From Streptomyces sp. 71268 (lineage in GTDB: Bacteria; Actinomycetota; Actinomycetes; Streptomycetales; Streptomycetaceae), in NCBI RefSeq assembly GCF_029392895.1, contig NZ_CP114200.1, forward strand, positions 5,115,001 through 5,179,000: 64,000 nucleotides of DNA, read 5' to 3'. The first letter of the stretch is position 1. Each line of letters starts with the position of its first letter. Both the position numbers and the translations under genes were made by a program. The notes below the pieces were generated by a model. The model saw nothing but the letters and a program-made list of their open reading frames with translations. It did no database searches and was not told where the DNA came from. Below are positions 1 through 5,440 of the stretch, in pieces.

Positions 1-27
1 CTGATTGTGTGGATGGATGCCTGGCGT

Positions 28-49
28 GAGCGGGCTGATCGCCCAGCTC
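28..49. terminator. Possible terminator hairpin at the left edge
   Basis: An eight-base arm starting GAGC pairs with a complementary arm that carries one bulged A, around a five-base loop. It would fit the end of a gene lying left of the window, or a structured leader for the peptide gene. No U-tract follows, so this is weak. Confidence 0.25.
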
Positions 50-120
50 TACAGATGGGATGAAGAGGTGTAAATTAGGACATCGTGAACAGCCGTCGAG
101 AGCGATGGCCACGTCTATTG

Positions 121-126
121 AGGAGG
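121..126 (+). promoter_or_regulatory. Ribosome binding site that fixes the peptide start
   Basis: A perfect AGGAGG lies five bases before the ATG at 132. It decides for that start rather than the in-frame ATG at 60, which has no Shine-Dalgarno sequence. It is among the strongest ribosome sites in the window and suggests the peptide is made in larger amounts than the coupled proteins behind it. Confidence 0.8.
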
Positions 127-131
127 CATCG

Positions 132-308
132 ATGCTTGCTCAGCACACCGCATCCCTACTCGCCACTCCCACCGACCAAGCAGCCGTCGGTCACCTGATG
201 ACCGAGCCTGAGGCGCCGCTGAGCGACGCTCCGATGTACACGCCGCAGGCCGCGGGCGTGCTGCTGCTCCTGCTGCTCCTGTCGCCGAAGGAGCCGAAGG
301 ACAAGTGA
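132..308 (+). CDS. Small peptide with poly-leucine tail, candidate RiPP precursor
   Basis: Encodes 58 aa. Residues 1-34 are mixed and mildly acidic like a leader (TDQ, TEPE, LSD). Then come APMYTPQAAG, a run of V plus seven L at about 43-50, and a charged end SPKEPKDK. The hydrophobic run is too short for an ordinary transmembrane helix. The start is set by the perfect AGGAGG at 121-126. The stop overlaps the GTG start of the next gene (GTGA), and three further genes follow with the same overlaps, so the peptide is co-translated with two unknown proteins and a serine hydrolase. I know no family for it. A modified-peptide precursor fits the size, the leader-like composition and the context, but this is inference; a small membrane-associated protein is the alternative. 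Confidence 0.6.
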   Translation: MLAQHTASLLATPTDQAAVGHLMTEPEAPLSDAPMYTPQAAGVLLLLLLLSPKEPKDK

Positions 309-1261
309 GCCCCGATCGGTCGCAGACGGCCTACGCCGAATCGGCGGCCGACCTGGCTCGTCGTGTCCTCGGCGCCCTCCGGGGCGCCGGGGGCACGGCC
401 CTGGTCGCCGAACACGTGGAACGGGCGGGCGACCCCAAGGCCGCGCTGGCCGCCCTGCGGGTCGTGGGAGCGGACACCTTCGCCCCGTTCCTGCTGGGCG
501 ACAGCGTCTTCCACCCCCAGGACGCGGCGGCTTTCGCCACCTCCTTCACGATCTTCCCGCCCCCCGTCACCTCGCCCACCCCGCCCCCGGCGGGCCCCGC
601 CGAACCCTGGGTCGTGGCCTGGCGCGACTGGGCGATGGCCGAGTTGCTCGGCCGGTTCACCGCGCCCACGGGACCGCCGGCGGCCGGCTCCGCCGCGGCC
701 GGCCTCGCGGAGCTGACCGGCATCGACACCGCCGAGGTGACCGGGGTGCGGGCACCGCAGCCGCAGGGCGCGCCGCTGCTGGTCGACGACCGGTTGCGGG
801 CCGCGTACGGCGCGGGCGGCCCCCGCGCGCGCGAGGCGGTCCGCGTCCCCGAGGGGTCGTACGCCGCCGACCGGCTGCACGCCACCGACGCCGCGTACAC
901 GGCCGACGCCCCCGCGTCCGCCACCGAGGCCGCGGGTCTCGACTGGCAGCGCTGGTCGGTGCGGATGGGGCAGCTCTCGCCGCTGGCCCTGCCCGGCCTC
1001 GACGGACCCGTGCACCGCGCGGCGCGCGCCGCCCCGCTGGCCCTGGCCCGTGGTGCCAGCCGCGCCCTGCTGCGCCGCGACCACCCCACCGCCGCCCGCA
1101 TCGTGCGCTGGCTCGCCCTCCTCGGCTCCGACGGGGTGCCGCTGCCGCTGGAGCTGCCCCCGCTGATCGAGCACCTGGAACTGCTCGGTGGCGGCGGCCC
1201 CCGGATCGCCCTCGACCTGACCATCTCCCGCCGACTGCTCGCACTGGAGCCCTCCGCATGA
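305..1261 (+). CDS. Unknown protein A of the peptide cassette
   Basis: A 318-aa protein starting at GTG, overlapping the stop of the peptide gene by four bases (GTGA); its own stop overlaps the next start (ATGA). No signal peptide or membrane segment is visible, so it is probably cytosolic. A proline-rich break (FPPPVTSPTPPPAGPAEPW) near residues 80-98 separates an alpha-helical N-terminal part from a longer C-terminal part containing WVVAWRDWAMAELLGRF and LDWQRWSVRMGQLSPLALPG. I recognise no catalytic motif or named family: no HExxH, Walker or SAM motif. The coupling on both sides suggests it works in fixed stoichiometry with protein B and handles the peptide, which is inference from context only. 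Confidence 0.65.
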   Translation: MSPDRSQTAYAESAADLARRVLGALRGAGGTALVAEHVERAGDPKAALAALRVVGADTFAPFLLGDSVFHPQDAAAFATSFTIFPPPVTSPTPPPAGPAEPWVVAWRDWAMAELLGRFTAPTGPPAAGSAAAGLAELTGIDTAEVTGVRAPQPQGAPLLVDDRLRAAYGAGGPRAREAVRVPEGSYAADRLHATDAAYTADAPASATEAAGLDWQRWSVRMGQLSPLALPGLDGPVHRAARAAPLALARGASRALLRRDHPTAARIVRWLALLGSDGVPLPLELPPLIEHLELLGGGGPRIALDLTISRRLLALEPSA

Positions 1262-2199
1262 CGGCGTCCGTCACCCAGACCGCCCACCAGGTCAGCTCCA
1301 AGGCGCTGGCCTGGCTGCACGCCCACCACCAGCGCGGAGCGCTGCCCGACGACACCACGGCCGACCTCGGCGACCCGAACAGCGTGTACAAACCGCTGGG
1401 CGAGACCGCCCTGGCGGGCACGCTCGTGCTGCGCGAGGCCGCGGCCGGCACCACCGAACTGCGCGTCGCCCGCGAGCTGATCGACTACTGCTGGCGGCAG
1501 TTCCGCGAGGGCGACATGCTCTACGAGCGGCTGCTGCGCTACCCGATGATGAGCGACCCGCTGGAGACGTACTCCCACTTCACCCGGGTCGGCTACCGGC
1601 ACGAGCCGCTGGAGCGGCTGCTCGCGCACACCACGCGACTGCGCACGGTGCGTGGCGTGGAGCAGGTGCCCAACCGCAAGCTCGCGGTCGCCAACGCCAC
1701 CCGCGTCGTCGGCCTCGACGCGGGGCCGCACGCCTACGACTGGGACGCGCTCGCCCGCGCCACCTGGCTCGGCGGCACCCCCGAGCCCTGGCTCATCGAC
1801 TGGATGACCGGCTACTCGCTGACCCACGCGGTCTTCCACCTCACCGACTGGGGCGCCCGCCCCACCGGGCTCTCGCTCGAGCTGACCGAGTACGTCTCGA
1901 CCTGGCTGCCGGTGTGGATCGACATCTGGGCCGAGATCGAGCAGTGGGACCTGGTCGCCGAGTTGATGATCGTCGGGTGCTGCCTGGAGCGGCCGTACTG
2001 CGACGCGGCCGACTGGGAGCTGCTGGCCCGGGTGCAGCACGCCGACGGCCTGATGCCACGCGACGGCGACCCGGTCTCCGACGACCCCGACGAGCGCTTC
2101 GAGCACCACCAGCACACCGCCGTGGTCGCCGCCGTCGCGGGCACCCTCGCGGTCTCCCGCACGCTCGGCGGCAGTCAGCCCGTGCCGGCGGGCCGGTGA
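1258..2199 (+). CDS. Unknown helical protein B of the peptide cassette
   Basis: A 313-aa, mostly helical, probably cytosolic protein. It starts at the ATG overlapping the stop of protein A, and its stop overlaps the GTG of the hydrolase gene. Landmarks are WLHAHHQR near the start, KPLGETALAG, WLGGTPEPW followed by GYSLTHAVFHLTDWG in the middle, and ARVQHADGLMPRDGDP with EHHQHTAVVAAVAGTLA at the end. The last segments look like an alpha/alpha-toroid repeat. From memory the overall pattern resembles the uncharacterised Streptomyces family DUF6895, which I cannot verify here. No zinc-ligand set of the LanC type is seen. The role is unknown; a modifying or binding partner for the small peptide is the simplest contextual guess. 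Confidence 0.65.
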   Translation: MTASVTQTAHQVSSKALAWLHAHHQRGALPDDTTADLGDPNSVYKPLGETALAGTLVLREAAAGTTELRVARELIDYCWRQFREGDMLYERLLRYPMMSDPLETYSHFTRVGYRHEPLERLLAHTTRLRTVRGVEQVPNRKLAVANATRVVGLDAGPHAYDWDALARATWLGGTPEPWLIDWMTGYSLTHAVFHLTDWGARPTGLSLELTEYVSTWLPVWIDIWAEIEQWDLVAELMIVGCCLERPYCDAADWELLARVQHADGLMPRDGDPVSDDPDERFEHHQHTAVVAAVAGTLAVSRTLGGSQPVPAGR

Positions 2200-3404
2200 G
2201 CGGCCGCAAGGACGCGGAGCCGGCGGTCGCCGGCCGGGCGGACGCGGGGCAGCGGGGGGTGGGACCGGGGGACGGGCACCGGCGCACCGGCCGGGGCGCG
2301 CGCGGGGGCGCGCGGACGGCGCCCGCGCCCATGGGGGCCGAGCCGGCGTGGGCCACCGAGACCCTGGTGCCGCTGTTGCGCGCGGCTCCGGGCGCCAGCG
2401 GCGTCGCGGTCGCCGCCCGACGCGGAGCGGACCGGGTCTTCCTCGCCGACGGGCGCACCGCCTGGGGCGACGGCCGCCCCGTGGACGCCGACACGCGCTT
2501 CGAACTCGGCTCGCTGACCAAGACGTTCACCGCGCTGCTGCTGGCCGAGTCGGTGGCGCGCGGCGAGGTGCGGTACGAGGACCCGATCACCCGCTTCCTG
2601 CCGCGCGTCGCGGCCCCCCGGGTGCCCGGCGGCCCGATCACGCTGCTGCACCTGGCCACCCACACCTCCGGGCTACCCCGGCTGCCCCCCGGCCTCCTCA
2701 CCCGCGCCGCCCCGGAGTGGTTCACCAACCCGTACGCCACCTTCCGCACCGAGGACCTGCTCGCCTCCCTCGGCCACACCCGCACCCGGACCCGCCCCGG
2801 CCACCGGTTCCGCTACTCCAACTTCGGTGTCGGGCTCCTCGGCCACCTGCTGGCCCGGGCCGCGTCGCCGGGGCGCGGCGCCTACGGCGACTACGGGGAA
2901 CTCCTGGCCGGCCGGGTGCTGCGCCCGCTCGGGCTGCGCCGTACGACGTGCACGCCCGAGCTTCCGCAGGCCACCGGCTACTGGCACGGCCGGGCCCGCC
3001 CCCCGTGGGAGATCCCGGGGCTGCCCGGTGCGGGGGCCCTGCGCTCCAGCACCCGCGACGTGCTCGACCTGCTCGACGCGCTCGCCGACCCGGCCACGGC
3101 GCCGGGCACGGTGCCGGCGCGGTTGACCGAGGCCCTCGCGGACGTGACCCGGCCCCGGCTCGTGGTGCCGCGGAGCACCGCCCGGATGGCGCTGGTCTGG
3201 AACATCCGCCCGCGCCCCGGTTTCGACCTCTACCACCACTCGGGCGGCACGCGGGGCTTCACGGCGTTCGCCGGCTTCAGCCCGCAGGCGGGCGTCTCGC
3301 TGGTGGCGCTGGCCAACCGGGCGCCGGCCCCGAACGGGGCGTTCATCCAGCGGGCGTACGGCGCGTTGCGGGGGTTGGCGACGGGGTGTGTGGAGGGCGC
3401 GTAG
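2196..3404 (+). CDS. Serine hydrolase, class C beta-lactamase-like
   Basis: A 402-aa penicillin-binding-protein/beta-lactamase-fold hydrolase. Visible motifs are SLTK (nucleophile S106, K109), YSN (Y207) and a C-terminal HSGG in place of KTG, the usual set of class C/esterase relatives (CubicO type). There is no signal peptide, so it should act in the cytosol rather than on cell wall. I chose the GTG at 2196 because it overlaps the preceding stop exactly like the other junctions of this operon; an internal ATG at 2331 would remove a low-complexity Gly/Arg stretch and is also possible. In this setting it may cut, acylate or release the small peptide. The fold is clear, the substrate unknown. 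Confidence 0.75.
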   Translation: MSGRKDAEPAVAGRADAGQRGVGPGDGHRRTGRGARGGARTAPAPMGAEPAWATETLVPLLRAAPGASGVAVAARRGADRVFLADGRTAWGDGRPVDADTRFELGSLTKTFTALLLAESVARGEVRYEDPITRFLPRVAAPRVPGGPITLLHLATHTSGLPRLPPGLLTRAAPEWFTNPYATFRTEDLLASLGHTRTRTRPGHRFRYSNFGVGLLGHLLARAASPGRGAYGDYGELLAGRVLRPLGLRRTTCTPELPQATGYWHGRARPPWEIPGLPGAGALRSSTRDVLDLLDALADPATAPGTVPARLTEALADVTRPRLVVPRSTARMALVWNIRPRPGFDLYHHSGGTRGFTAFAGFSPQAGVSLVALANRAPAPNGAFIQRAYGALRGLATGCVEGA

Positions 3405-3456
3405 CGGCCCGCCCCCGGACCCGGGCCCGCTGTGACGCGTGATGCAAGATGGCCGC

Positions 3457-5440
3457 ATGGCACGTAACGGGGGCAACGCCCGGCTGATCGCCGGGCGTTA
3501 TCGGTTGGTGGGGCAGTTGGGGCGCGGTGGCATGGGCACCGTGTGGCGGGCCGACGACGAACTGCTCGGCCGCCAGGTCGCGGTGAAGGAACTGCACCTG
3601 GACGAGGGCCTGTCCGCGCTCGACGCCCAGGCGCGGCGCGAGCGCACGCTCCGCGAGGCGCGCACCGTGGCCCAGCTCAAGCACCCGCACGTCATCGTCC
3701 TGCACGACGTGGTGGAGCAGGACGAACGCCCGTGGATCGTGATGGAGTTGGTCGACGGCCGCTCCCTGGCCGACCAGATCGCCGAGAGCGGCCCGGTCGG
3801 CCAGCGCGAGGCGGCCCGTATCGTGCTGGCCCTCCTCGACGCGCTGGGCGCGGCGCACGCGCGCGGCGTGCTGCACCGCGACATCAAGCCGGCCAACGTG
3901 CTGATGGAGGCGGGCACCGGGCGCGTCGTACTGACCGACTTCGGCATCGCCCAGGTCGCCGGGGCCACCACCATCACCGAGACCGGCACCTTCGTCGGCT
4001 CGCCCGAGTACACCGCGCCCGAGCGCATGTCGGGCCGCAGGACCGGCCCCGAGTCCGACCTGTGGTCGCTGGGGGTGTTGCTGTGCACGCTGGTCAGCGG
4101 CGAGTCGCCGTTCCGGCGCGACTCGTTGGGCGGGGTGCTGCACGCCGTCGTCTTCGACGAGATACGCGCGCCGGCGCAGGCCGGCCCGCTCGCGCCGGTC
4201 GTCCTCGGGCTGCTGGAGCGCGACCCGGCGCGCCGGCTCACCGCGGCCAGCGCGACCTCGTTGCTCCGCGCGTACGGCGCGCACCCCACCTCCGACGACG
4301 GCCTCCCGCTGGCCCCCGCCGCGCACGCCCCCCGCCCCGGGCCCTCCGCGACCCGCGCCCGGCCCACACCCGTCGGGCCACTCGCGACAGGACCAGGTCG
4401 CGGGCGGCGCCACACAGGACGGGGTCGGCCCCGTGGGTCACGGCCCCGCCCGGGGGAACGGCGCCCCGCCGGGGCAGGGGCAGCCGGTGCCCGTGGCCCA
4501 CGGGGCGCACCAGCAGGCCGGCCCCGGCCACCCGCCGACGGTCGACTCGCCGGCCGCTGCCCATGTCCCGCACGCCACCCACGCCCCTGGCGCGGGCCAC
4601 GCCCCGCCCGGGGGTCACGGCCCGCCCGCCGGTCACGCCCCAGCGGCCGGACAGGGCGCGCCCGCGCCGGCCACCCCCGACGGGACGCCGCCCGGCGGCG
4701 CCGGCCCGGGGCGCCCGGCGCGCGGGTCGCGCGGGCGCACCGTGGCCCTGGCCGTCGCCGCCGCCGTCGCGCTGGCCGGGCTCGTGGCCGGCACCGTGGT
4801 GCTGCTGGATCGGGGTGACGACGGCGCGTCCAACAGCGCCCAGGACGGCGACAAGGGCGGCGACGAGGGCGGCCGGGGCGAGCGGACCAAGGGCCCGGGC
4901 GGTGCGGAGGACCAGGTAAGGGAGCGGGACGACGCGCCCACCGACCAGCCGCCGACGGGGCCCACCACGGTGCCCACGGCCGCGCCCGACGGATACGAGC
5001 TGATCACCGACCCGGCCGGGTTCCGGGTAGCGGTGCCCAAGGGGTACACCCGCTCGTACGAGGCGCCGCGCGTGTACTACTACTCGCCGGGCAAGGCGTT
5101 CCGGATCGGCATCCACCCGCAGACCCTGGACCCGCGCGGCGCGGTGCGCGTGATGCGCGAGGCGCACGCCGAGGGCTCGCAGCGGTACGAGGGCTACCGC
5201 GACGGCCGGGTCACCGAGACCACGCACAACGGCCGGCCGGCCGCGCTGTGGGAGTTCACCTGGAACGGGGCCCAGGACGACGGCGGGGCGCGGCGGACGT
5301 ACGACCTCAGTTGGGACGAGGGTGGCCGGATGTACGACGTGTGGGTATCGGCGCCCGTGGCGGAAAAAGACGAGGGTAGGCGACATTTCGCCACCGTTGT
5401 GGATACCTTCGACCTCCCCGGCGGCGGTAACCAGCCCTAG
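3457..5440 (+). pseudogene. Transmembrane Ser/Thr kinase broken by a frameshift
   Basis: A PknB-type kinase followed by a membrane helix and an extracytoplasmic domain, split over two frames. From ATG 3457 the kinase frame shows GRGGMGTVW, catalytic K44, HRD (140-142) and DFG (161), and runs on as arginine-rich nonsense to 4818. The continuation (GHSRQDQVAGGA, a helix near 4740-4806, then an extracellular domain ending GGGNQP at 5440) lies one base ahead. The switch point is near 4328-4345, where a run of six C sits in the linker; removing one C restores a single protein of about 660 aa. As read, the kinase loses its membrane anchor and sensor. A possible -10 (CAAGAT) six bases before ATG 3457 suggests a leaderless transcript. 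An assembly error is the likeliest cause. Confidence 0.75.

What the first reader, a model, noticed from the sequence alone, without database searches (positions are those of the whole stretch)
132..3404. Four-gene overlapping cassette with a tiny poly-Leu peptide: candidate new RiPP-like system
A 58-aa peptide with an excellent ribosome site is followed by two proteins of no recognisable function and a cytosolic SxxK serine hydrolase. Every junction is a four-base stop-start overlap (GTGA at 305, ATGA at 1258, GTGA at 2196). Strict coupling of peptide, two unknown proteins and a hydrolase is how peptide-modification operons look, yet none of the usual RiPP enzymes (LanM, YcaO, radical SAM, lasso) is present. 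This is the best candidate in the window for an undescribed system.
Basis: partly seen in the sequence, partly recalled or inferred. Interest (0 to 1): 0.78.

Follow-up and report, generated by a model that had tools for sequence, protein, structure and literature searches.

The report
Streptomyces poly-leucine peptide maturation operon
This is a compact, widely conserved Streptomyces operon that encodes a small leucine-rich peptide together with proteins that probably modify and cut it, and it looks like an undescribed kind of ribosomally made natural product.

Summary
In detail: a 58-aa peptide gene with a strong ribosome site is followed by genes A, B and C through three 4-base stop-start overlaps. 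It is not a quirk of one genome. All 62 non-duplicate loci with A also encode, upstream of A, a small peptide with a short aliphatic, leucine-rich stretch; B follows in all 62 and C in 61. No other neighbouring gene family is in more than 13 of them. The peptide frame is under purifying selection (mean pN/pS 0.41). In 394 Streptomycetaceae genomes A and B occur together in 196, A alone in 5, B alone in 21.

B is Pfam DUF6895, a family for which a 2026 paper title reports a lasso-peptide epimerase; it also sits in radical-SAM and LanC-containing clusters. C is a beta-lactamase-family (S12) serine hydrolase with its active-site motifs and no strongly hydrophobic segment. A is predicted all-helical and matched no family.

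Best reading: a RiPP-like pathway in which B makes D-residues in the aliphatic core, A assists, and C, from a fold known to act at D-residues, cuts or cyclises there. Anatomy and conservation are shown; the chemistry is inferred and no product is known.

The parts
120..126 (+). ribosome-binding site GAGGAGG, 5 bases before the ATG
   Evidence: a GGAGG/AGGAG-grade site precedes the peptide start used in 44 of 45 T1 loci, but in only 5 of 13 T2/3 loci
132..308 (+). 58-aa precursor-like peptide, subtype T1: N-terminal part, EPEAPLSDAPMYTPQAAG, then VLLLLLLL, then SPKEPKDK
258..281 (+). aliphatic stretch VLLLLLLL (residues 43-50 of the peptide); putative core
   Evidence: a leucine-rich aliphatic stretch is seen in all five peptide subtypes
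282..305 (+). conserved Pro/Lys tail SPKEPKDK (residues 51-58); putative follower
   Evidence: T1 alignment of 45 loci, consensus SPkePK
305..1261 (+). protein A, 318 aa, predicted all-helical, no named family; putative peptide-binding or scaffold partner of B
1258..2199 (+). protein B, 313 aa, DUF6895 (PF21836), predicted alpha/alpha toroid; putative peptide epimerase
   Evidence: paper title
2196..3404 (+). protein C, 402 aa as called (start unsure; M46 is one alternative), beta-lactamase-family (PF00144, S12) serine hydrolase with SLTK, YSN and HSG motifs; putative D-residue-directed peptidase or cyclase

Best explanation
The cassette is a self-contained RiPP-like operon. The 58-aa peptide is a precursor with an N-terminal leader-like part, a short aliphatic core (here GVLLLLLLL) and a Pro/Lys follower. 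B (DUF6895) inverts one or more core residues from L to D by acid/base chemistry in the cavity of an alpha/alpha toroid. A, an all-helical protein that accompanies B in these operons, holds the precursor or completes B. C, a probably cytosolic S12 serine hydrolase, recognises a D-residue (perhaps D-Leu) at its acyl-enzyme site and either cuts off the follower or passes the acyl group to an amine, closing a ring. Shown: coding, order, co-occurrence, overlaps, B's family and predicted fold, C's active-site motifs. Inferred: that the peptide is the substrate, that B here is an epimerase, the role of A, and the D-preference of C.
For: Every A locus examined (62 of 62 after dropping known duplicates) has a small peptide gene with an aliphatic stretch upstream; B is in all 62 and C in 61. 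The next most frequent neighbour family is in 13 of 62, at scattered positions on both strands. In 394 genomes A and B occur together in 196, against about 111 expected from their frequencies (201 and 217) if independent. Peptide pN/pS 0.41; gene overlaps recur. [quoted passage not shown] Members also lie with a radical SAM enzyme and a 37-46-aa peptide gene (L092-L094, L096-L098; Pfam run on L092 and L098) and with LanC-like genes (Pfam run on L100 and L101). K45, E49, W79, E103, H190, H194, D231, E235 and H286 are kept in all 21 rows examined outside the radical-SAM clusters (window plus 20), both copies of tandem operons included. C keeps S106, K109, Y207 and H348 in 19 of 19 aligned proteins. 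PBP-type thioesterases act on C-terminal D-residues, D-Leu in SurE's native substrate (passages of PMC11735501).
Against: No product or activity is known. The DUF6895 epimerase paper was not held, so its residues and substrate could not be compared. No RiPP recognition element or leader peptidase was recognised among the four proteins. No exporter is a fixed part of the unit: the most frequent neighbour family (13 of 62 loci, ABC-exporter-like by eye) has no fixed place. Peptides are strongly conserved within a subtype, unusual for diversifying antibiotics. C is closest by sequence to class C beta-lactamases, which does not fix its substrate. B's fold matches terpene cyclases at least as well as epimerases. 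Loci were gathered by searching with B, so locus-level co-occurrence is conditional on B.
Confidence: 0.55

Rival explanations
1. The peptide is not a precursor but a small structural or regulatory subunit of an A-B complex, for example a docking or membrane-binding peptide, and C acts on something else such as cell-wall precursors.
For: The peptide is very conserved within subtypes, including its Pro/Lys tail; no fixed exporter or further peptidase belongs to the unit; its aliphatic stretch is short (maximum 19-residue hydropathy 1.48) but could bind a partner.
Against: Subtypes differ widely outside the aliphatic stretch (T4 is Gly-rich, T5 has an extra tail), as precursor families do. DUF6895 members also sit in other peptide clusters, pointing to peptide modification.
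Confidence: 0.22
2. It is a RiPP operon, but B here does chemistry other than epimerisation (or is a non-catalytic partner), and C is an ordinary L-specific processing peptidase or esterase.
Against: The charged and aromatic residue set is kept in both B copies of tandem operons and the family recurs with other peptide clusters, which fits one shared peptide chemistry.
Confidence: 0.3
3. C is a self-protection or product-inactivating enzyme carried along with the operon rather than a maturation enzyme.
For: Sequence closest to class C beta-lactamases; the precursor could be matured by housekeeping proteases; C is missing at one locus, L123.
Against: C has no strongly hydrophobic segment (maximum 19-residue hydropathy 1.33) and so looks cytosolic. 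It is in 61 of 62 operons and overlaps B by four bases in 34 of 40 T1 loci tested.
Confidence: 0.15

Closest known systems
DUF6895 lasso-peptide epimerase (Shi et al., ACS Catal. 2026, 16:1757; title only, from the reference list of PMC13352647)
   Same: Protein B is a strong member of the same Pfam family (PF21836, E 9e-82).
   Different: None of the four cassette proteins is a lasso enzyme; the peptide has an aliphatic core and a Pro/Lys follower, and the operon adds A and an S12 hydrolase. The paper itself was not held.
MslH of the MS-271 lasso pathway (PMC10406935; abstract and passages seen)
   Same: A peptide epimerase acting on a ribosomal precursor.
   Different: MslH has a calcineurin-like fold with Ca(II); B is a predicted alpha/alpha toroid. 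Not the same family.
Penicillin-binding-protein-type thioesterases such as SurE (PMC11735501; passages seen)
   Same: A serine enzyme named for its penicillin-binding-protein kinship; SurE's native substrate ends in D-Leu, and such enzymes join an N-terminal L- to a C-terminal D-residue.
   Different: SurE works on nonribosomal peptides; C is paired with a ribosomal peptide. C and SurE were not compared here. SurE's extra C-terminal domain (recalled) has no counterpart in C.
Plant orbitides and the PCY1 cyclase (recalled, no call)
   Same: Short hydrophobic core between a leader and a conserved follower, with a serine enzyme that cuts and cyclises.
   Different: PCY1 is a prolyl-oligopeptidase-family enzyme and no epimerase is involved (recalled).
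Other clusters carrying DUF6895 (L100, L101 with LanC-like genes; L092-L094, L096-L098 with radical SAM)
   Same: Same DUF6895 family in a peptide-cluster setting.
   Different: These have LanC-like or radical SAM enzymes; the window cassette has neither, and has A and C instead.

Membership tests
RiPP pathway (general) | Conserved small precursor ORF beside candidate modifying enzymes | tested here: met
   62 of 62 non-duplicate A loci have the peptide; pN/pS 0.41 in 16 T1 sequences
RiPP pathway (general) | Post-translationally modified product derived from the precursor | not testable with these tools
   needs mass spectrometry or reconstitution
RiPP pathway (general) | One of the usual RiPP enzymes (LanB/C/M, YcaO, radical SAM, lasso, ATP-grasp); a common mark, not a defining one | tested here: not met
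   Pfam and NCBIfam scans of the four proteins name only DUF6895 and beta-lactamase-family models above weak matches
DUF6895 (PF21836) | Score above the Pfam gathering cut-off over the whole domain | tested here: met
   275.1 bits against 23.8, profile 2-288 of 289
DUF6895 peptide epimerase | L-to-D epimerisation of a peptide residue | not testable with these tools
   only the title of the reference paper is known
MslH-type epimerase | Calcineurin-like fold | tested here: not met
   B is predicted all-helical (pLDDT 94.1, no strand of 3 or more residues); MslH is calcineurin-like
Lasso peptide pathway | Lasso cyclase and leader peptidase beside the precursor | tested here: not met
   none among the four cassette proteins; flanking genes were not scanned with Pfam
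Serine hydrolase family S12 / PF00144 | SxxK, YxN and HxG motifs in a beta-lactamase domain | tested here: met
   189.6 bits, cut-off 27; S106, K109, Y207, H348 and G350 invariant in 19 of 19 aligned C proteins
PBP-type thioesterase (SurE-like cyclase) | Head-to-tail cyclisation at a C-terminal D-residue | not testable with these tools
   no activity data; no comparison with SurE was run
RiPP recognition element (RRE) in A | Winged-helix fold with three beta strands (recalled) | tested here: inconclusive
   the model of A (mean pLDDT 85.5) has helices only, but residues of roughly 121-210 are mostly low-confidence and no RRE model was searched

The most novel reading that the evidence does not exclude
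[quoted passage not shown] This would bring the SurE logic of nonribosomal peptides into ribosomal peptide biosynthesis, in about half of Streptomycetaceae genomes.
Probability: 0.18. Interest if true: 0.88.

Novelty: new variant of a known kind. Interest (0 to 1): 0.72.

Why it matters
Protein A of this cassette was found in 201 of 394 sampled Streptomycetaceae genomes, 196 of them with B, yet the peptides and A match no Pfam or NCBIfam family above cut-off, and my searches of the held papers showed no description of the operon. If it makes a D-residue-containing peptide, it adds a new precursor class and enzyme pairing (DUF6895 with an S12 hydrolase) to RiPP biosynthesis. The strong conservation of the peptides hints at a signalling or developmental role rather than a strain-specific weapon (inference). 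It offers a handle (DUF6895 plus A) for genome mining and a small reconstitution experiment.

Tried and rejected
Chance ORF: rejected, the frame is conserved and under purifying selection.

A as a diverged copy of B: profile-profile comparison gave probability 0.6% over 7 columns; not supported by sequence.

Promoter and terminator scan: no sites in 1-4000; uninformative for Streptomyces.

Literature: DUF6895 is in one held paper, PF21836 in none, 'RiPP' with 'peptidase S12' in none; some searches gave listings (titles and starts of abstracts seen; others listed not quite all hits) with nothing on this operon. Most subscription journals are not held.

Rows dropped or chosen: L105, L111 and L128 are duplicates of L030, L019 and L010, recognised by equal contig length; other duplicates were not looked for. 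Two of them (L111, L128) were A loci, hence 62 of 64. In eight loci (L017, L028, L029, L073, L076, L083, L109, L127) the automatic peptide pick was another frame and was replaced by the peptide frame seen, by eye. The 17 of 81 loci without A are not in the 62. Two T1 loci (L029, L107) show two B ORFs; they look like one broken B each. One search's overlap test did not check for stops; one search did, and peptide/A fell from 31 to 29 of 41.
Full report
OBSERVATION. Peptide: MLAQHTASLLATPTDQAAVGHLMTEPEAPLSDAPMYTPQAAGVLLLLLLLSPKEPKDK.

WHAT THE PROTEINS ARE. Pfam and NCBIfam give nothing for the peptide and only sub-threshold matches for A. B is DUF6895 (275 bits, cut-off 23.8, nearly full length). 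C is in the beta-lactamase family PF00144 (189.6 bits); its closest solved relatives by sequence are class C beta-lactamases (the best 60 of 117 and of 112 were shown). S106, K109, Y207 and H348 are invariant in 19 of 19 aligned C proteins from the operons. In 66 C ORF hits, fragments included, simple patterns found SxxK in 63, YxN in 60 and HxG in 59; misses are fragments at L011 and L029, YxN at all three T5 loci, and HxG at L080, L082 and L089. C shows no strongly hydrophobic segment.

CONSERVATION. A scan of the named-genome collection for close relatives of B gave 22 loci; peptide, A and C are detectable in 21, all but L030. In 394 Streptomycetaceae genomes DUF6895 was found in 217 (215 over the cut-off) and the A profile in 201; 196 have both, 5 only A, 21 only B, two of these 21 (G234, G241) below the DUF6895 cut-off. 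A sample of 396 genomes across the phylum gave 7: six in the window's genus, the window's own genome among them, and one below the cut-off. Protein-database relatives of B (best 120 of 351 shown) also come from Saccharothrix, Thermomonospora, Embleya and others. I fetched stretches at 60 places (two were stubs). With the 22 named loci and the window this made 81 loci: B in 81, A in 64, C in 63. Dropping duplicates leaves 62 A loci, each with a peptide: 45 of subtype T1 (the window's), 13 T2/3, 3 T5, 1 T4; C is in 61.

THE PEPTIDES. T1 consensus: MLaQ ... M.EpEA..SDAP.Y.PeA.G.LLLllLlSPkePKep. T2/3: DGVFRDSRECAALAL...LLLSPPTPRPKKG and CGGGLLLAALLLISPPTPRPK. T4 (L085): glycines and a tryptophan, then LLLLSVGKPKK. 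T5 (L086, L087, L091): for example GAALLLLAGALLL, then a conserved tail. The shared feature is a short leucine-rich aliphatic stretch; in T1 to T3 it is followed by Ser-Pro (Ala-Pro in L082) and a Pro-rich, mostly basic tail. Selection was measured on 16 T1 sequences (120 pairs): mean pN 0.159, pS 0.391.

OPERON STRUCTURE. In T2/3 loci the DUF6895 gene is doubled (13 of 13), with four-base overlaps at A/B1 and B1/B2 in 13 of 13 and at B2/C in 12 of 13; peptide and A overlap in none of the 13. In T1 loci the overlaps occur in 29 of 41 (peptide/A), 33 of 41 (A/B) and 34 of 40 (B/C). In a gene-family comparison within 7 kb of A in the 62 loci, my simple gene caller recovered B in 62, C in 59 and A in 56. 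The next family (ABC-exporter-like by eye) is in 13 T1 loci at scattered positions on both strands. So the cassette itself is the conserved unit. In a tree of 54 B proteins the second copy of tandem operons lies nearer to single-copy B than the first copy does, with some weak forks; the radical-SAM-cluster members stand apart; the root is for drawing only.

STRUCTURE. B is predicted with high confidence (pLDDT 94.1, pTM 0.92) as an all-helical alpha/alpha toroid, tied between terpene cyclases, GH105-like enzymes and sugar epimerases. Invariant in 54 of 54 aligned proteins: W19, K45, W79, G112, T189, H190, D231, L232, G264. In 21 rows outside the radical-SAM clusters (the window and 20 from loci, both tandem copies included) K45, E49, W79, E103, H190, H194, D231, E235 and H286 are all kept; of the five radical-SAM-cluster rows three have lost E49, E235 and H286. 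This looks like an acid/base active site (inference). A is predicted all-helical (pLDDT 85.5) with a low-confidence middle and no trusted structural match.

MECHANISM. [quoted passage not shown] that paper was not held. DUF6895 genes without A lie in clusters with a radical SAM enzyme, a glycosyltransferase-like gene (below Pfam's cut-off), an MFS-transporter-like gene (by eye) and a 37-46-aa peptide gene (L092-L094, L096-L098; Pfam run on L092 and L098), and with LanC-like genes (Pfam run on L100 and L101; L103 and L104 look alike by eye). The family thus looks like a tailoring enzyme of several RiPP classes. If B makes D-residues in the aliphatic core, the partner C makes sense: S12 enzymes include D-Ala-D-Ala carboxypeptidases, D-aminopeptidase and alkaline D-peptidase (recalled), and PBP-type thioesterases cyclise peptides whose C-terminal residue is D, in SurE natively D-Leu (passages of PMC11735501). 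This pairing is my inference; no activity has been measured.

NOVELTY. The held-paper searches showed no description of this operon, and peptides of subtypes T2 to T5 and three A variants gave no Pfam or NCBIfam hit. I rate it a new variant of a known kind (RiPP-like), the epimerase family itself being in print.

LIMITS. Loci were gathered through B, so locus counts are conditional on B; the genome counts say nothing of neighbourhood. Eight peptide frames were chosen by eye. The start of C is uncertain. The chemistry is inferred.

Noticed in passing
L092-L094, L096-L098 (unnamed Streptomycetaceae genomes): A different peptide cluster: a 37-46-aa peptide with a Cys and Asn/Ser-rich end, a glycosyltransferase-like gene, a radical SAM enzyme between two DUF6895 genes and an MFS-transporter-like gene. 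Three of the five DUF6895 rows compared have lost E49, E235 and H286.
   Followed up: partly
L100, L101, L103, L104: DUF6895-containing gene beside LanC-like genes (Pfam in L100 and L101) and an ABC transporter pair (by eye); L100 also has a LanB-sized gene and a Cys-rich 56-aa ORF, suggesting DUF6895 in class I lanthipeptide-type clusters.
   Followed up: partly
L130:6162-8192 and L106:6624-8156: Orphan 65-66-aa ORFs (with LVNLDISLEHLV / LINLDASVKDYV) just before larger DUF6895 proteins (590 and 419 aa); perhaps another small peptide system.
   Followed up: no
window 3439-5440: The Ser/Thr kinase gene after the cassette reads in one frame up to 4818 and in another from 4433 on, which looks like a frameshift; in S. 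buecherae (L128) only a 73-aa remnant was called there.
   Followed up: no
L011, L029, L107: Copies of the cassette with A, B or C split over several ORFs, for example in Streptomyces philanthi (L011), apparently decaying while the peptide frame is intact.
   Followed up: no
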